32,598 nucleotides of DNA from Puniceicoccales bacterium (GCA_031284165.1 JAITAK010000035.1:1-32598); one strand, 5' to 3'; positions 1 through 32,598 are shown, numbered from the stretch's first letter. Notes: generated from the sequence alone by a model not told the origin. Numbers and translations are program-made.

Positions 1-704
1 TCTCTCAAATCGATCTCGTTTAAATCTAAAACATCCTGCAAAACTTCCTGCAAAATTGGCTTTTCACTGAGAATCAAGTGCCCTTGTGCATCTACATTGG
101 ATTTCAATGAACAAAATGCAAACCATGTATCGTCATTTGCAAGTCGAGCCTGCGTGCATAATGCCCATACGACGTGCTGATTGCTACTTTTTTTATTAAA
201 TAGGGCGAGCACTTTTGCAGGTACCGCTGCATTGATCCCTTTCAATATTGTTCCGTAGCCCAAAAACCTCTGCGAGTGGTCTCTTAGCACTTTGTTTTGC
301 ATCTCAACGTCAAAAAACTGCTCTTGCTCTCCATGCTTTCCTCCTACAAAACAGCGACATGCTATATCGAAACGAATCTCTCCGAGTCCACCTTCCCATT
401 TGTTTTGCCTGTAATTTTCCTTTATGAGCTCAACTCGTTCTATTTTTACCTCTCTCTCTTTAGGATAATACATAGCATTTAGAAAGCTCCTTAAGCGCGG
501 ATAATTCGTATCTGAATCTCTTTCAAATATCGCTTTAAAGGGGTCGTCATAGAACGGTCCCGCTATGTTAGCCGATTCTCCAGCTTCGTAGCTTTCTTCT
601 CCTTCTTCGTTTCCTACCTGAAACAGGCACTGTCCTCCTACAAATTTCCATTTCCCTTTAGCTCTTAAGAAAAGTGACTCTTCTTTACATTTCTGTTCTT
701 TCAT
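1..704 (-). CDS. PD-(D/E)XK nuclease family protein, Rpn/PDDEXK_2 transposase-like; 3' end lies outside the window
   Basis: Open minus-strand frame from ATG at 702-704 to the window edge with no stop, absent from the ORF track. Hand translation: MKEQKCKEESLFLRAKGKWKFVGGQCLFQVGNEEGEESYEAGESANIAGPFYDDPFKAIFERDSDTNYPRLRSFLNAMYYPKEREVKIERVELIKENYRQNKWEGGLGEIRFDIACRCFVGGKHGEQEQFFDVEMQNKVLRDHSQRFLGYGTILKGINAAVP... The pattern FKxIF...SFLNA...RFDIxC...FFDVEMQ...R...Y resembles PDDEXK_2/Rpn proteins. Confidence 0.72.
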   Translation of the reverse strand, partial: MKEQKCKEESLFLRAKGKWKFVGGQCLFQVGNEEGEESYEAGESANIAGPFYDDPFKAIFERDSDTNYPRLRSFLNAMYYPKEREVKIERVELIKENYRQNKWEGGLGEIRFDIACRCFVGGKHGEQEQFFDVEMQNKVLRDHSQRFLGYGTILKGINAAVPAKVLALFNKKSSNQHVVWALCTQARLANDDTWFAFCSLKSNVDAQGHLILSEKPILQEVLQDVLDLNEIDLR

Positions 705-15844: not shown

Positions 15845-16900
15845 TTATAAATTGATCTTATAATCGTAATGTATTCCATAAAAAGGTAATTTCAGCGATA
15901 CACATTCCTTTTCCATGGCGTCAATCATTTCGGAATGGTCATCGATGCCAACAATAACCATAGGTGGCCAAGATTTAGGTTCATTTCCAAACACAGAAGA
16001 CAAAAAGGCGTGCATGGCGATTCCTTTAAGTGGTACAGGTACATTATCTTCGCACTGCTTTAAGAAAATCATACCGCGGTTGTAGACGGAAAAAGCGCAA
16101 ATTTTTTTATCATATTTTCCCGGAGATGTTTCAAGATAGTATTGTCCGTCTTGAACTTGAACTTTAGAAGGTTCTTCGCCATCTTTTTTAAACAGAGGTT
16201 CACCGCCGATATCGTCCGACTCTACGATGAAAGGAAGTTCTTTCATTCCCGACCAAAATGACGTATTCAATGGAATCTTCAGATATTCCATGGCGTCGCA
16301 ACGAGTCTCAATCATCGATTTGCCATTTTCATCGACAGGTACGATATTAGGGTACCCTTCTGGGGTGATCTCCAATTTCAGGGATGAGACATTTGTTAAA
16401 CCTATAAATTTCAAGTTTTTTTTCTGAGAATTTAAGTCACGGAGCTTTTGAGCAAGATCTAAATTGACGGCCCGCATTTGACTAAAATTAAAACAATGCT
16501 TATATGAATTCGTATCTGAAGCTTCCTTAATCAATGTTTCGTCGATATCAATGAACATCAGCAGCGTTTTATTGGCATTTTCCATGGAGGTGTAAATCTT
16601 ATAAACCTCATCTAAAATTTCGCAGGCTACCTTTTCTGATTCCGGCTGAAATTTCTTACATAAAAATTGAGCCGTTGAAGCTACGGCGGTTTCTCGATTG
16701 GAATTTTCAGGCGGTTTAGGTAATGATGACGGGGCGATATCAGGTTTTGGAAGATTAAGTTTATGCACTTTAGGATGCCTTGTTGTGACAGAAGTTCTCG
16801 AAGCATGGTTATTTTCAGTAGGAAGATTTCCTTGCAAAGATGATGAAAAAGGAGTTCCAAGGACCAAAAATACATTTACAAGATATAAAGAATTTCTCAT
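15845..16900 (-). CDS. Secreted HAD-like protein of DUF2608 type
   Basis: Signal peptide at internal Met (MRNSLYLVNVFLVLGTPFSSS, ATG at 16898-16900); HAD motif I LLMFIDIDETLI, FIGLTNVSS, C-terminal PPMVIVGIDDHSEMIDAMEKEC. The track ORF extends to 16978. Confidence 0.75.
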   Translation of the reverse strand: MRNSLYLVNVFLVLGTPFSSSLQGNLPTENNHASRTSVTTRHPKVHKLNLPKPDIAPSSLPKPPENSNRETAVASTAQFLCKKFQPESEKVACEILDEVYKIYTSMENANKTLLMFIDIDETLIKEASDTNSYKHCFNFSQMRAVNLDLAQKLRDLNSQKKNLKFIGLTNVSSLKLEITPEGYPNIVPVDENGKSMIETRCDAMEYLKIPLNTSFWSGMKELPFIVESDDIGGEPLFKKDGEEPSKVQVQDGQYYLETSPGKYDKKICAFSVYNRGMIFLKQCEDNVPVPLKGIAMHAFLSSVFGNEPKSWPPMVIVGIDDHSEMIDAMEKECVSLKLPFYGIHYDYKINL

Positions 16901-16912
16901 TATGATGTATGT

Positions 16913-17977
16913 ATGATTTTTTTTCGTAAAAATACAAATTTTTTCGACAAATTTCCACGCGAAAAAATAAGGTGTCACACAGCGGAATGGTGGAAAAATT
17001 TGGGGATAAGGATAAGCTTTGGTTTTTATCTCTGTTTTTTTCCGATGAGTTCATTAGCCGAGGATGAAAAAGTTCTTCAACGAGGTAGTGAAGATAAAGA
17101 AAGAAGTTTTGGAAGTATAACGATTAGCGAGGATCAAATCAAGATCATGAAAGGCATTGCCGATCTCCTTTTTCCTTATCAAGATAGTACTGAAAATTCA
17201 GCTTTAAATACGCAGAATAAGAATCAAGAAAACGTCATTCGAGATGTTATTCCTCCAAAATCTGAAAAAGTTTTAAAAATAGGGATCATTGACGATAATC
17301 TGCCATTTGCGGCGATACGCCATGGAGTTCCAGTGGGCTTTGAAGTGGACTTAATCCGTTTGATCTTAGAAGAAGAGATGGCGAGCATTGAAATTTTGCC
17401 AATAGACATCATGAAAATCAAAGAGAGTATTGAAGGAGGTAAGGTTGACGTTGTTTTAGGGGGGTTGATCAGAGATTGCCGAGAGGATTGTGCGTTAGGG
17501 TTAGAATATAGCGATAGTTATTTAAATGCGGATATCGCAGCAGTTGTCCCAAAAAGAGTCAAAAGAGATTTGCAGGGAAAATCGGGAAAAGATTTACAAA
17601 AGTTTTCCTTTGAAGGAAAGCGTATTGGGGTTGTGAGCGGTTCTTTTTTTGAGCGTTATATACGTGCGGCACGCATTCAAAATGCCGAGGTTGTCGTCTG
17701 GCCATCCCATGGGGAAATGCTTAAAAGTTTTCTAAAAGGCGATAAAAGTTCCGCGCAAAGCATGGATATTTTGCTGACCCATCACCATATTGCTCGAGAT
17801 TGGATAGCGAGGAATCCAGAATTAGAGACGCTGCCGTTGAAAATTGGAGGCGAAGTTGCTATCCAAATGCGGAAGGATTCCCCATGGTTAGCGATCATTA
17901 ATCAAAGAATAAAAAAATTGATAGGATCGCAGCGATTTTTAGACCTCATGTCCCGTTGGTCAATCACCACAAATTGA
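16913..17977 (+). CDS. Periplasmic solute-binding protein (SBP family 3-like) with N-terminal signal and linker
   Basis: LKIGIIDDNLPFAAIRHGVPVGFEVDLIRLILEEE, GKVDVVLGGLIRD, YSDSYLNADIAAVV, GKRIGVVSGSFFERYI. Signal-like KNLGIRISFGFYLCFFPMSSLAEDE; a TTG at about 17000 is a possible alternative start. Confidence 0.78.
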   Translation: MIFFRKNTNFFDKFPREKIRCHTAEWWKNLGIRISFGFYLCFFPMSSLAEDEKVLQRGSEDKERSFGSITISEDQIKIMKGIADLLFPYQDSTENSALNTQNKNQENVIRDVIPPKSEKVLKIGIIDDNLPFAAIRHGVPVGFEVDLIRLILEEEMASIEILPIDIMKIKESIEGGKVDVVLGGLIRDCREDCALGLEYSDSYLNADIAAVVPKRVKRDLQGKSGKDLQKFSFEGKRIGVVSGSFFERYIRAARIQNAEVVVWPSHGEMLKSFLKGDKSSAQSMDILLTHHHIARDWIARNPELETLPLKIGGEVAIQMRKDSPWLAIINQRIKKLIGSQRFLDLMSRWSITTN

Positions 17978-28550: not shown

Positions 28551-29243
28551 CTATCGACCATGGACAGATTTATCGGTACCTTTTTTTAAGAGCTGATTAT
28601 ATTTTTTACATCTTTCAAGATAAAGTTCTTGTAGTTTTTTTTGAAGTTCTGCTAATAATAATCTTTTCAATTTACTATCCTGGACATTACTATCCTGGAC
28701 ATAAAGATTGCTAAACTCACTAAAGTCATTAAATAGTTCTTTTCCCAGAAAATGAGGATTGCCAAACTTATCGCACGATTCATCACAACACCCGCTCTGA
28801 TTGATCAAATAGCAATCAGCGATTGTATCGTCTGTATTGTCGATAGTGATAATATGACTGGGGCTATAGTGACGTATTAAGCTTGAACTGAATTGGTAAT
28901 CCTGGCCATTGAGTACGTGCTTTATTTCACCCCATTTTACGCGAGCGGCCTTCAGTGAAATCTCTGGCCTTTGCCAATGGTCGGCCAAAATTTGACACGT
29001 TAATCTCCCGCCATGCTTACAAGCAAGTTGCAATAAATAATCAAAGTCATCCAATGTCCATGTATGTTTTGTATGAGCGGCAAAGTCAGCGCTTTTAGGA
29101 GAATTTTGAAGACTTTGAAAAGAAGCGCAACATAACTCAACATTTCCTGCCCAAAGGACTGTTATTAAATATTGACCCAGAGTTTTTTTTTCAAAAACAG
29201 ACCCTAATTCAGAAAGAATTTTCTGCTTAAAAAAGTTCTTCAT
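28551..29243 (-). CDS. Uncharacterised protein A, putative member of the WT(x)D(N)L-core family
   Basis: 230-aa ORF; KHTWTLDDFDYLLQLACKHGG...HWQRPEISLKAARVKWGEIKHVLNG resembles the 30417-31499 and 31815-32598 ORFs. Contains a duplicated VQDSN/VQDSK. Confidence 0.6.
   Translation of the reverse strand: MKNFFKQKILSELGSVFEKKTLGQYLITVLWAGNVELCCASFQSLQNSPKSADFAAHTKHTWTLDDFDYLLQLACKHGGRLTCQILADHWQRPEISLKAARVKWGEIKHVLNGQDYQFSSSLIRHYSPSHIITIDNTDDTIADCYLINQSGCCDESCDKFGNPHFLGKELFNDFSEFSNLYVQDSNVQDSKLKRLLLAELQKKLQELYLERCKKYNQLLKKGTDKSVHGR
28673..28702 (-). repeat. Exact 15-bp tandem duplication inside the uncharacterised ORF
   Basis: tactatcctggacat x2, read on the plus strand. Confidence 0.9.
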
Positions 29244-29345
29244 TTAAACCGATTCACTGCATACCTCTTTGCTTATTCATCCATAAAATCGTGTGTAAGT
29301 CAAGAAACAATGATAAAACATAAAGGCGATTTTCGACGAAATTTT

Positions 29346-30284
29346 TTAAAATTCTGCGAGGATTTGTTGTGTATATTCGGCAATAACTTTTGCGCAGCGA
29401 TCTAAGGCGCTATGTTCTTCAGGCGCAAGATCTGGGTATAGGACTTTTATGATACCGGAGCGACCGACAACCGTGGGCATCGCTAAGCATACATCGTGAA
29501 CGCTTTCAATGGATCCGTGGTGAGAGGAAACCGGCAATAAACTGTGAGCGTCCATAGCCAATGCATGGCAGATTTTTCCCAAAGCTCCTGCAATGCCATA
29601 AAATGTAGCCCGTTTACCTTCGATAATTTTATAGGCGGCATTTCTGACGTTATCGTCGATAGTTGCGACGACGTCGTCAGTAAATGTTTTACCGATAGTT
29701 GCGGCAAACTGATGGATATTGATAATGCCCACATTGGCCTTAGACCAGGCTAGAACCTCGTTATCGCCGTGTTCTCCTAGGACATAGGCCTGAATTGATT
29801 CCGGTGAAATTTCCAAAAATGCGGCCAATTCTGTACGGAAGCGTGCACTATCCAAAAGCGTACCGCTACCGATAACGCGTGCCTTTGGAAATCCTGAGAT
29901 TTTTAAGGTAATCTCCGTCATGAGATCCATCGGGTTTGAAGCAACGAGGAGGATGGCATGAGGAGCGTATTTGATGACTTGAGGGACAATTTCCCTGAAA
30001 ATTTGGGCATTAATTTTAAGGAGATCGAGGCGCGTTTGTCCCGGTTTTTGATTTGCGCCGGCAGTAAAAATAACGATATCCGCATCGCGCAAAGCATCAT
30101 AATCTCCTGCTATAATGCGATTGGCATAGGCACAGGGTGTAGCATGGCGAATATCCATTGCTTCTGCTTTAGCCCGGGCGGTATCCTTATCCACGAGAAT
30201 GACCTCATGCGCGATGCCCCCCATAATTAATTGAAATGCTGTCGCACTTCCCACAAAACCTGAACCTATAATACCAATTTTCAT
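29346..30284 (-). CDS. L-lactate dehydrogenase (lactate/malate dehydrogenase family)
   Basis: MKIGIIGSGFVGSATAFQL, GANQKPGQTRLDLL (Gln in the substrate-specificity position favours lactate), VASNPMD, GSGTLLDSARFR, VLGEHGDNEV. Start taken at internal Met at 30284. Confidence 0.92.
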   Translation of the reverse strand: MKIGIIGSGFVGSATAFQLIMGGIAHEVILVDKDTARAKAEAMDIRHATPCAYANRIIAGDYDALRDADIVIFTAGANQKPGQTRLDLLKINAQIFREIVPQVIKYAPHAILLVASNPMDLMTEITLKISGFPKARVIGSGTLLDSARFRTELAAFLEISPESIQAYVLGEHGDNEVLAWSKANVGIINIHQFAATIGKTFTDDVVATIDDNVRNAAYKIIEGKRATFYGIAGALGKICHALAMDAHSLLPVSSHHGSIESVHDVCLAMPTVVGRSGIIKVLYPDLAPEEHSALDRCAKVIAEYTQQILAEF

Positions 30285-30361
30285 AAACACTATCGCATAT
30301 AGTAAAATTCCCGCTAATTGCAATTAAAATTAATCTTTTTACGAGGAATGATCAGTTCTTT

Positions 30362-30466
30362 TTGCATCATTAAGTTGTTTTTCTGGCATGCTAAGTTATT
30401 CTCTTGGCATGTTAAATTATTTTCTTAGCTCGTTAAGAAGCCAACTTAGCACGCTAAGTCTGTCAG
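30362..30466 (-). repeat. Degenerate 21-bp tandem array, about 5 units, spanning the stop codon of the 30417-31499 ORF
   Basis: Plus-strand units: ttgcatcattaagttgttttt / ctggcatgctaagttattctc / ttggcatgttaaattattttc / ttagctcgttaagaagccaac / ttagcacgctaagtctgtcag. Confidence 0.85.
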
Positions 30467-31499
30467 ATTTTGCCAATACTACGGGTGAAGGAAAAAGAAG
30501 ATGCCCGTGAATGATTTGACACGCCTCGGTCAAGGCGGCATCGTTTTTTATACAAGCTAACCAGTTATTGCTGTGTTGCAATATGGAAGTGGGTTCATTG
30601 CTATTTATGAATGAAGATATGGTGTGCAGGACTTCTTGCGCTTCCTGTAGCGTAAAGCCCGTGTCACTCCTCCACCTTTGTTCGTCGATTTCGGTGTTAA
30701 ATTTGCGTTCCTTCTCATTCCACGCGGAGAGCATTAAGTTTTTTAAATTGTCAATGGTCCATTTTTTTCGTTTATTTTTTATACGATAAAAAGTTCTCAA
30801 TTTCTCACGAAACTGTTTCTGCAAATCCACACTAACAGAAGCCTTGTTTAGGTAACAACTCAATAGCGCTCTCAGTAGCAATAGATTACCTTTGTTGTTA
30901 TTTATGAGACAGACAATGATCTCGCTATATTTACATTTAGCTTTAGCTGCATCTACCTTATAAAATTTAGGATTCCATTTCTTCCAAGAAACTTTTCCTT
31001 TATTATTAATGTTGTCAATAATATAATTGAATAATATATCGAACATTGGCCAATTGTTCCATAGGTCTCTGTTCTTTTCTTGGTGCTTCTTGCCACTGCT
31101 TATCTGCGTATTAGCCCAAGGGTTGAGACTATTAGCCCAAGGGTTGAGACTGAGACTATTACTTATCTGCGTATTAGCCTGAGGGTTGAGACTAATAGCC
31201 TGAGGGTTGAGACTAATAGCCCAAGGGTTGAGACTATTAGCCCAAGGGTTGAGACTATTAGCCCAAGGGTTGAGACTATTACTTATCTGCATATTAGCCT
31301 GAGAGGAGAGAATATTACTTGTCTGCTTTGTAGTATTGTCCTCGAAGATCCACTTATTGCGATCGAAAATATTATGGAAACTTTCAGCAGCCATGGAAGT
31401 GTTACTAAAACTTACAATCCACGGAAGTAACAGCATGTTAAGACATAACTTAGTGCCATATTTTCTTACGGCTTTGTTTTTATTTATATGTGTGTTCAT
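30417..31499 (-). CDS. Uncharacterised secreted protein B with NSLNPWA heptapeptide repeats
   Basis: Start at internal Met (MNTHINKNKAVRKYGTKLCLNMLLLPWIVSFSNTSMAAES, signal peptide); repeat block NSLNPWA; core RKKWTIDNLKNLMLSAWNEK...RWRSDTGFTLQEAQEVLHTISSFIN. Confidence 0.75.
   Translation of the reverse strand: MNTHINKNKAVRKYGTKLCLNMLLLPWIVSFSNTSMAAESFHNIFDRNKWIFEDNTTKQTSNILSSQANMQISNSLNPWANSLNPWANSLNPWAISLNPQAISLNPQANTQISNSLSLNPWANSLNPWANTQISSGKKHQEKNRDLWNNWPMFDILFNYIIDNINNKGKVSWKKWNPKFYKVDAAKAKCKYSEIIVCLINNNKGNLLLLRALLSCYLNKASVSVDLQKQFREKLRTFYRIKNKRKKWTIDNLKNLMLSAWNEKERKFNTEIDEQRWRSDTGFTLQEAQEVLHTISSFINSNEPTSILQHSNNWLACIKNDAALTEACQIIHGHLLFPSPVVLAKSDRLSVLSWLLNELRK
31099..31302 (-). repeat. 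21-bp tandem array coding for SLNP[WQ]A[NI] heptapeptides, 7 units
   Basis: Plus-strand unit attagcccaagggttgagact and variants (agcctgagggttgagactaat), interrupted by a recurring acttatctgc(g/a)tattag module; protein NSLNPWANSLNPWANSLNPWAISLNPQAISLNPQANTQISNSLSLNPWANSLNPWANTQIS. Confidence 0.95.
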
Positions 31500-31527
31500 T
31501 GTATGTGTTTTATTAAAGATGGTGTGC

Positions 31528-31556
31528 ACAATGATAGAGGAAATCTGAAGTGTCAA
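31528..31556 (-). promoter_or_regulatory. Possible promoter for the 30417-31499 ORF
   Basis: Reverse strand TTGACA-like -35 (exact TTGACA needs the adjacent base; tgtcaa at 31551-31556) and a weak -10 CATTGT at 17-nt spacing. Confidence 0.3.
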
Positions 31557-31776
31557 GTCGTAAATGATAGAAATAAATAGATAAATTTTGCGAGGCAATG
31601 TGCTACACTTTCTGGAGCTGTTTTCGTTAAAGATCAATAGCCATAGGTTGGCGTCGTTACCTAGGAAGAAATACCAATGGTGACTACCGATGCATTCCTA
31701 ACGCGCAAGGAGTTTTAAGACATGCGCAACCTCCACACGTAAAAAGCAGGAAATGGCCGCTGTTTATAAAAAATCA

Positions 31777-31801
31777 AGCCGTTTCGCAAGGCGAAACGGC
31801 T
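31777..31801 (-). terminator. Rho-independent terminator for the 31815-32598 ORF
   Basis: Perfect 11-bp stem agccgtttcgc-aag-gcgaaacggct; on the minus strand it is followed by tgatttttt. Confidence 0.85.
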
Positions 31802-31814
31802 CAAGATCTTCCCT

Positions 31815-32598
31815 TTAATCATCAAAAGCAATCAATCGATAAAGGTTTGCATCAGCATCAGCATCCTTGGGAATATTATTTAAGCTACCTTGTTGACCCT
31901 TAGGTCTACCTTGTTGACCCTTAGATTTACCTTGTTGATCCTTAGATTTACCTTGTTGATTCTCAGATTTACCTTGTTGATTCTCAGATCTACCTTGTTG
32001 ATTCCTAGAGCGAGGTTTTGGATTTTGACTTTTTTTTGGCTTTTTTTCGCTAGTGCGATTTTTGATGATGAATTGACCGCTAGGCGCTAGTCGACTAAGT
32101 TCTTGCAACAACTGTGTATCCACGTTAGGATTTGGGTTGGTATAAGTGTCGATTATCGCTTGCCTCAAGGAACCACTACCAAGTTTATTATTAAATACCC
32201 CAAGTATACTATACCATTTTTTTATAATATCTTCAATTGTAGGCTCTTTTGAGAGAGAAGGAAAAAACGTTGAAACAGACTGGGAGCTTCCCTGTATCTG
32301 CAATACATTATTGTCTTGATCGCATTTAATGTACTCAGCGAGTTTAATGAATTTCTCGGGTTTCATTGATCCGTTAAAACAAGAATCTAATAATGCGTGA
32401 AGGTTTTCATTTGACCATTTTGTATCCTCCTGGCCTATACCCTGCGGATTACGTTTTAGCCTATTACGAATAAAATATAATTGATATAATGCTTGCCAAA
32501 GGCTTTTCAAGAACACCTGCTTTTGTTCATCTATTGTTTCTTCTTTGCCCGATTGAATAGAATTAAGATAATCAGCATTAAAATAACACTCCTTAAAC
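31815..32598 (-). CDS. Uncharacterised protein C with QQG[KR] heptapeptide repeats; 5' end lies outside the window
   Basis: The frame stays open to the window edge; the track's start at 32516 is a GTG, and upstream in-frame residues read FKECYFNADYLNSIQSGKEETIDEQKQ. Core DTKWSNENLHALLDSCFNGS; C-terminal NQQGRSENQQGKSENQQGKSKDQQGKSKGQQGRPKGQQG. Confidence 0.7.
   Translation of the reverse strand, partial: FKECYFNADYLNSIQSGKEETIDEQKQVFLKSLWQALYQLYFIRNRLKRNPQGIGQEDTKWSNENLHALLDSCFNGSMKPEKFIKLAEYIKCDQDNNVLQIQGSSQSVSTFFPSLSKEPTIEDIIKKWYSILGVFNNKLGSGSLRQAIIDTYTNPNPNVDTQLLQELSRLAPSGQFIIKNRTSEKKPKKSQNPKPRSRNQQGRSENQQGKSENQQGKSKDQQGKSKGQQGRPKGQQGSLNNIPKDADADANLYRLIAFDD
31885..32008 (-). repeat. 21-bp tandem array coding for [NDG]QQG[KR][SP][EK] heptapeptides, 6 units
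   Basis: Plus-strand unit taccttgttgacccttagatt with variants, repeated six times in frame. Confidence 0.92.

What the first reader, a model, noticed from the sequence alone, without database searches (positions are those of the whole stretch)
28551..32598. Cluster of three divergent paralogues sharing a W[TS]-x-[DE]-[ND]-L core, possibly an undescribed protein family
Three minus-strand ORFs without a recognisable family carry comparable cores: A KHTWTLDDFDYLLQLACKH; B RKKWTIDNLKNLMLSAWNE; C DTKWSNENLHALLDSCFNG. B and C also share an upstream CY[FL]N...F(x)3LxxxYxI(R/K)N(K/R) stretch (C: CYFNADY...VFLKSLWQALYQLYFIRNRLKR; B: CYLNKAS...QFREKLRTFYRIKNKRKKW). A and B share a downstream W-x-R-x3-[IF]-[ST]-L-x2-A-x5-I-x2-[VF]-[LI]-N. 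B has a signal peptide. An exported, repeat-bearing local family in a possibly host-associated genome would fit secreted host-interaction factors, but function is inference.
Basis: partly seen in the sequence, partly recalled or inferred. Interest (0 to 1): 0.75.

Follow-up and report, generated by a model that had tools for sequence, protein, structure and literature searches.

The report
Secreted Myb/SANT-like proteins in protist symbiont
The three odd proteins belong to a fast-evolving family of exported proteins in a roughly 1-Mb bacterium whose named genus relatives come from termite guts; at least one is a diverged copy of the eukaryotic Myb/SANT DNA-binding fold, and its close relatives carry up to 35 further Myb repeats each, which suggests that these bacteria send gene-regulator look-alikes into their host cells.

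Summary
The ORFs and cores exist, but A, B and C share no significant direct pairwise similarity. The family becomes visible through two further genes on contig C56 (D, E). C-E are 47% identical. D-E share domain 1. B, D and E share signal-peptide DNA, with 94% over 371 bp for B-D ending at the cleavage site. C and D look like two halves of one gene split by a contig break; fabI-mdh synteny in relatives supports this.

The family is not wholly new. A and its fabI-linked relatives form a profile whose best matches in the whole PDB are c-Myb (E 0.004; top eight hits all Myb) and which aligns with canonical Myb repeats (89%, E 2e-6; 0/60 shuffles). AlphaFold gives A a confident three-helix core, with mostly Myb/TRF/SANT Foldseek hits, none individually significant.

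The genus (Opitutales MAGs, termite-gut isolates, ATP/ADP translocase) carries 2-35 canonical Myb domains in 10/12 genomes. 28/33 canonical Myb ORFs have signal-peptide-like leaders. No larger-genome relative has any.

Best reading: exported Myb/SANT proteins acting on host chromatin, possibly in intranuclear "Nucleococcus"-type symbionts. Export and host-nucleus action are inferred. For B, C/D and E the Myb assignment rests on linkage, not significant sequence similarity.

The parts
28551..29243 (-). Gene A, 230 aa: signal-peptide-like leader, one Myb/SANT-like domain, long C-terminal helix
   Evidence: ORF; profile link to relatives and Myb; AlphaFold
29124..29243 (-). Signal-peptide-like N-terminus of A (residues 1-40)
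   Evidence: read from the sequence: long n-region, hydrophobic run LGQYLITVLWAG, CCA/S; not tested with a predictor
28905..29069 (-). Myb/SANT-like three-helix domain of A (residues 59-113)
   Evidence: profile A2 match 28878-29069, E 7e-22 (A is in the profile); AlphaFold pLDDT about 90, helices at A residues 64-76, 83-89, 97-113; Foldseek hits c-Myb, TRF1/2, PHR1, ISWI SANT
29346..30284 (-). Lactate/malate dehydrogenase family gene (mdh), synteny anchor
   Evidence: Pfam Ldh_1_N/C; next to fabI in genus relatives
30417..31499 (-). Gene B, 360 aa: signal peptide, NPWANSL tandem repeats, two W-domains
   Evidence: ORF; leader shared with D and E
31389..31759 (-). Leader cassette of B (about 260 bp upstream plus signal-peptide codons 1-37), 94% identical over 371 bp to that of D; identity stops at the cleavage site
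   Evidence: blastn
31099..31281 (-). 21-bp tandem repeat (SLNPWAN) between leader and domains of B
   Evidence: Tandem Repeats Finder
30879..31061 (-). W-domain 1 of B (divergent)
   Evidence: position in the shared architecture only; no significant profile match
30591..30779 (-). W-domain 2 of B (core KKWTIDNLKNLM)
   Evidence: weak alignment with C/E
31815..32597 (-). Gene C, 3' part of a gene whose 5' part is probably ORF D on contig C56
   Evidence: open 5' end at contig end; E spans the D-C junction; fabI-mdh synteny
32190..32426 (-). W-domain 2 of C (core TKWSNENLHALL)
   Evidence: 47% identity with E; weak profile similarity to A and relatives (5.7%, 0/60 shuffles)
31885..32009 (-). 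21-bp tandem repeat in the C tail (ENQQGKS), shared with E

Best explanation
A, B, C/D and E form a local, rapidly diverging cluster of Sec-exported proteins in an endosymbiotic Opitutales bacterium of a genus whose named members are termite-gut MAGs. Their globular units are, for A, and probably for the others, highly diverged Myb/SANT three-helix domains: an extreme branch of a genus-wide repertoire of secreted Myb-repeat proteins that resemble eukaryotic R2R3 Mybs. Proposed mechanism: the signal peptide takes the protein across the inner membrane, a secretin-based system (two or three secretin genes per genome) or another route takes it out, and in the host protist cell the Myb/SANT domains bind host DNA or chromatin and alter host transcription. 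Tandem duplication with a conserved promoter/leader and hypervariable bodies diversifies the set. Shown: the genes, leaders, synteny, the Myb link of A, the genus-wide Myb set, secretins, ATP/ADP translocase. Inferred: Myb nature of B, C/D and E, actual export, nuclear action.
For: Profile of A plus fabI-linked relatives hits only Myb in the top eight of all PDB chains (c-Myb E 0.0036), and its next-best genomic hits after the family are canonical Myb ORFs. hhalign against the genus Myb profile: 82-89%, E 1e-5 to 2e-6, 0/80 and 0/60 shuffles. A versus relatives: 75%, 0/80. AlphaFold three-helix core at pLDDT about 90; Foldseek dominated by Myb/TRF/SANT. Relative L089 gives a sub-threshold Pfam SANT hit, E 0.001. 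The same locus (next to or between fabI and mdh) holds secreted SANT-like genes in G001, G003, G005, G007, G010 and G011. Canonical Myb domains in 10/12 genus genomes, none in larger-genome order relatives. 28/33 Myb ORFs have leaders against 38/117 control ORFs by a rough rule. ATP/ADP translocase in 13/14 family genomes; secretins in 12/12 genus genomes.
Against: B, C/D and E have no significant direct similarity to Myb. Foldseek E-values for A are all above 0.4. The C/B model is unusable (pLDDT 47). The A domain has net charge only +2 and a displaced second tryptophan, so DNA binding may be lost. No evidence of expression, export or host location. A Sec leader alone leads only to the periplasm.
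Confidence: 0.55

Rival explanations
1. The domains are SANT-like protein-interaction modules (histone tail or other host-protein binders) rather than DNA binders; the proteins are exported host-interaction factors without sequence-specific DNA binding.
For: Weak positive charge of the A domain and roughly neutral domains in C, D and E domain 1; ISWI SANT and DMAP1 among Foldseek hits; SANT_DAMP1_like is the one sub-threshold Pfam hit in a relative.
Against: A helix 3 is +3; B domain 1 and its connector are strongly basic (+6, +9); the canonical genus Mybs keep typical R2R3 sequences.
Confidence: 0.3
2. B, C/D and E are a separate lineage-specific family of exported proteins that only shares the W-x-x-[DE]-[ND]-L helix start with Myb by chance; only A belongs to the SANT-like group.
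For: No significant profile match of B, D/E domain 1 or C/E domain 2 to Myb or to A's relatives; A-B and A-C p values are not significant.
Against: Same locus as SANT-like genes of relatives, D-A local match p 9e-4, C/E domain 2 against A's relatives above all 60 shuffles, similar INK leader start in relatives.
Confidence: 0.3
3. The proteins are not effectors but envelope or surface proteins of the symbiont, or cytoplasmic regulators with mispredicted leaders.
For: Only a signal-peptide-like leader has been shown; no translocation signal or dedicated secretion gene was found in the cluster.
Against: Myb repeats are typical of eukaryotes, are absent from larger-genome relatives, and co-occur with ATP/ADP translocase; leaders are conserved as cassettes while the bodies differ.
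Confidence: 0.15

Closest known systems
Myb/SANT DNA-binding superfamily (Pfam PF00249, PF13921; R2R3 Mybs such as c-Myb and Trichomonas vaginalis Myb proteins)
   Same: Three-helix core, leading W[ST]xE/D, helix-3 basic residues in A; the profile of A and relatives hits c-Myb first in PDB. Canonical Mybs of the genus match c-Myb and MYB21 with E down to 1e-38.
   Different: A, B, C, D and E miss Pfam thresholds, lose the second tryptophan spacing, carry signal peptides and (B, C, D, E) tandem repeats, and lie in a bacterium.
Eukaryotic-like gene sets of clostridial endosymbionts of termite-gut protists (PMC10579323), which include Myb-like transcription factors
   Same: Intracellular lifestyle in the termite gut, ATP/ADP translocase, eukaryotic-like regulators, many with Sec signal peptides.
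   Different: There Myb is named only in passing among small GTPases and kinases; here there is a genus-wide Myb/SANT repertoire of up to 35 domains per genome plus a diverged fast-evolving branch.
'Candidatus Nucleococcus' cluster (intranuclear Opitutales of termite-gut flagellates; described via PMC8204192 and PMC11257099)
   Same: Opitutales, about 1 Mb genome, ATP/ADP translocases, termite gut.
Nucleomodulins (bacterial effectors acting in the host nucleus)
   Same: Exported proteins with DNA/chromatin-binding type domains in an intracellular bacterium.
   Different: Translocation and nuclear action not shown; no known nucleomodulin family with Myb repeats was found in the papers searched.

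Membership tests
Myb/SANT superfamily | Three-helix helix-turn-helix fold of about 50 residues | tested here: met
   For A only: AlphaFold helices 64-76, 83-89, 97-113 at pLDDT about 90; C/B model not usable
Myb/SANT superfamily | Profile similarity to Myb repeats | tested here: met
   For A together with relatives: hhalign 89%, E 2e-6, 0/60 shuffles; PDB profile search top eight all Myb. Not met for B, C/D, E
Myb/SANT superfamily | Score above Pfam gathering threshold | tested here: not met
   A, B, C, D, E: none. Met by L008:17591-18322 and dozens of genus proteins
Myb/SANT superfamily | Three regularly spaced tryptophans | tested here: not met
   Read from the sequence: A has W at 0, 28 and 42, against about 0, 20 and 39 in c-Myb R2; relatives keep only the first
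Myb/SANT superfamily | Sequence-specific DNA binding | not testable with these tools
   needs in vitro binding
Nucleomodulin / secreted effector | Export signal | tested here: inconclusive
   Clear leaders by inspection in B, D, E, less clear in A; 28/33 canonical Myb ORFs against 38/117 controls by a rough rule
Nucleomodulin / secreted effector | Delivery into the host cell and nucleus | not testable with these tools
   needs localisation in host cells
Candidatus Nucleococcus cluster | Opitutales from the termite gut with a reduced genome | tested here: met
   fabI loci of genus relatives are Puniceicoccales/Verrucomicrobia MAGs whose isolate codes I read as termite samples; genome 995 kb
Candidatus Nucleococcus cluster | ATP/ADP translocase | tested here: met
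   13 of 14 genomes of the family
Candidatus Nucleococcus cluster | 16S rRNA placement in the cluster; location in the host nucleus | not testable with these tools
   no 16S reference set or microscopy

The most novel reading that the evidence does not exclude
Protist-dwelling, possibly nucleus-dwelling, Opitutales carry and diversify a large arsenal of secreted Myb/SANT proteins, probably acquired from the host lineage, that act as foreign transcription factors on host chromatin; the window cluster is its fastest-evolving branch, with a conserved promoter/leader cassette joined to hypervariable DNA-binding bodies.
Probability: 0.35. Interest if true: 0.85.

Novelty: new variant of a known kind. 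Interest (0 to 1): 0.6.

Why it matters
How endosymbionts that live inside protist cells, or even nuclei, control host gene expression is open. A genus that spends a 0.6-1.1 Mb genome on up to 35 exported-type Myb repeats, plus a fast-diverging SANT-like branch next to fabI, gives named genes with a directly testable DNA/chromatin-binding prediction. It would be an unusually large Myb repertoire for bacteria and a case of eukaryotic transcription-factor domains turned into bacterial effectors.

Tried and rejected
Direct pairwise paralogy of A, B and C (not significant). Pfam hits TPR_BSK1_C, Sterile, PilN, CobT (E 0.07 or worse, far below cut-off). A profile built from the canonical genus Mybs does not detect A, B or C directly. 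C with B in AlphaFold (pLDDT 47, not used for fold search). Scan of viral contigs with the canonical Myb protein (one weak hit over about 33 residues). C/E domain 2 against the second domain of relatives: no similarity. Exact overlap of contig ends C13 and C56: none, so adjacency rests on synteny and on the E alignment. Literature: no paper found on Myb proteins in Opitutales symbionts; Sato et al. 2014 not held.

Full report
What is there. The window is a complete contig (C13, 32,598 nt) of a 995-kb, 75-contig genome. On its minus strand lie A (28551-29243), B (ATG 31499, stop 30417) and C (31815-32597, open at the contig end). None has a Pfam match above threshold.

The family becomes visible elsewhere in the genome. 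Contig C56 (L008) begins with two related minus-strand ORFs: D (1-768, cut off at its 3' end by the contig end) and E (967-2223). C and E are 47% identical; D and E share a first domain (p 1e-13); A matches D in KAARVKWGEIKHVLNGQDYQF (p 9e-4). B and D share 371 bp of DNA at 94%, covering about 260 bp upstream plus the signal-peptide codons and ending at the predicted cleavage site; E shares the signal-peptide part with D at 92% over 133 bp. The mature parts of B and D are otherwise unalignable. The pattern is a conserved promoter/leader joined to hypervariable bodies.

Synteny. In G001, G002, G003, G005 and G010, fabI and mdh are neighbours. In the window genome fabI is on C56 and mdh on C13, so the two contig ends probably abut and the order on the minus strand is fabI, E, D/C, B, mdh, A, rnhC. 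D ends PWSFELNK and C begins FKECYF, where E reads PWNSELRNEFDKCYI; D and C are therefore probably halves of one gene. There is no exact sequence overlap of the contig ends, and I did not write out a joined sequence. In G001 one gene lies between fabI and mdh (L086:4517-5377), core KWTLEDYNYLLRFIHEN...KNKCCHVERIL, like A's WTLDDFDYLLQLACKH...RVKWGEIKHVL. In G003, G005, G007, G010 and G011 proteins just upstream of fabI have the form WTLxEYExIVRAxL...LPGRTxxAI. Those with a visible N-terminus have leaders, and many begin with an INK-containing leader, as do B, D and E.

What the core is. A profile of A and these relatives, with no Myb protein in it, finds c-Myb first among all PDB sequences (E 0.0036); the top eight hits are all Myb. 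In the genomes its next hits after the family include canonical Myb ORFs (E 0.02-0.1). Profile-profile comparison with the genus Myb repeats gives 82-89% and E 1e-5 to 2e-6, with no column-shuffled version reaching the score. A alone against the relatives gives 75%, 0/80 shuffles. AlphaFold (eight sequences) gives A's core three helices at pLDDT about 90. Foldseek's list against PDB is mostly TRF1/2, c-Myb, PHR1, ISWI SANT, DMAP1 and homeodomains, but no hit is significant on its own (best E 0.41; PHR1 Myb 1.6 A over 56 columns). I take A as a diverged Myb/SANT domain. For B, C/D and E the evidence is position, leader, architecture and weak profile scores (C/E domain 2 versus A's relatives above all 60 shuffles but only 5.7%; B none); the C/B structure model was unusable.

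The wider setting. The same genome carries canonical Myb proteins on C56 (17591-18322, Pfam E 3e-16) and C48. In the genus 10 of 12 genomes carry Myb_DNA-bind_6 domains, 2 to 35 each at E <= 0.001; the only other relatives with them are two small genomes of another family; all larger-genome order relatives searched have none. Of 33 canonical Myb ORFs whose start lies in the fetched loci, 28 have a signal-peptide-like leader by a simple rule against 38 of 117 control ORFs; this rule is rough. Some carry an extra C-terminal region that looks OTU-like to me by eye (L047, L055, L060), but Pfam reported no OTU domain in the two tested. Best PDB matches of the canonical Mybs are c-Myb and MYB21 (3osf); from memory 3osf is a Trichomonas vaginalis protein, and 3zqc and 2kdz are T. 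vaginalis Myb3 and Myb1 according to PMC7145699. That fits, but does not show, a parabasalid origin.

The organism. fabI loci of the relatives belong to Puniceicoccales/Verrucomicrobia MAGs with isolate codes I read as termite samples (the reading of the codes is mine). ATP/ADP translocase is present in 13 of 14 genomes of the family, which points to an intracellular life. Papers describe intranuclear Opitutales of termite-gut flagellates ('Ca. Nucleococcus', about 1 Mb; PMC8204192, PMC11257099) and Myb-like factors among eukaryotic-like genes of clostridial protist symbionts (PMC10579323). Membership of the window genome in the Nucleococcus cluster was not tested.

Mechanism. Step 1, Sec export: supported by leaders. 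Step 2, release: every genus genome has two or three secretin genes and C56 has a pseudopilin-like protein, so a type II-like route is possible; inferred. Step 3, action on host DNA or chromatin: inferred from the fold. Step 4, diversification by tandem duplication with a kept leader: shown by the DNA pattern; its selective cause is inferred. Rivals are protein-binding SANT modules, a chance resemblance for B, C/D and E, and non-effector envelope proteins.

Verdict. The cluster is a new, fast-evolving variant of exported Myb/SANT-type proteins; the larger surprise is the genus-wide secreted Myb repertoire.

Noticed in passing
L008:17591-18322 (-) and L063:4105-4962 (+): Canonical Myb-repeat proteins in the window's own genome; the C56 one has a plausible leader by eye (missed by the rough rule), the C48 one has at least four repeats and runs to the contig end.
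   Followed up: yes
L046, L047, L053, L054, L058, L059 and others: Tandem clusters of secreted Myb proteins in genus relatives, often at contig ends, each species with its own leader type.
   Followed up: partly
L047:3559-5493, L055:3019-4032, L060:1678-2727: Myb proteins with an additional conserved C-terminal region that by eye resembles an OTU-type protease; no Pfam support.
   Followed up: no
G070 and G038 (another family of the order, 0.8-0.9 Mb genomes): Myb domains (20 and 3) in a second small-genome lineage, suggesting separate acquisition or shared ancestry followed by losses.
   Followed up: no
window 3-704 (-): PD-(D/E)XK nuclease family transposase-like ORF (Pfam PDDEXK_2); a similar ORF with a leader occurs in L059:1148-2539.
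   Followed up: partly
window 15845-16978 (-): Leader-bearing protein with a DUF2608 match, next to a family 3 solute-binding protein (16913-17977); their 5' ends overlap.
   Followed up: partly
L093:5944-6468 (+) and L094:274-843 (-): Further secreted SANT-like candidates (YTPxxIxxLFxMV core) downstream of fabI in G007 and G011.
   Followed up: partly
L008:13712-14164 (-): Type II secretion/type IV pilus pseudopilin-like protein (N_methyl motif).
   Followed up: no
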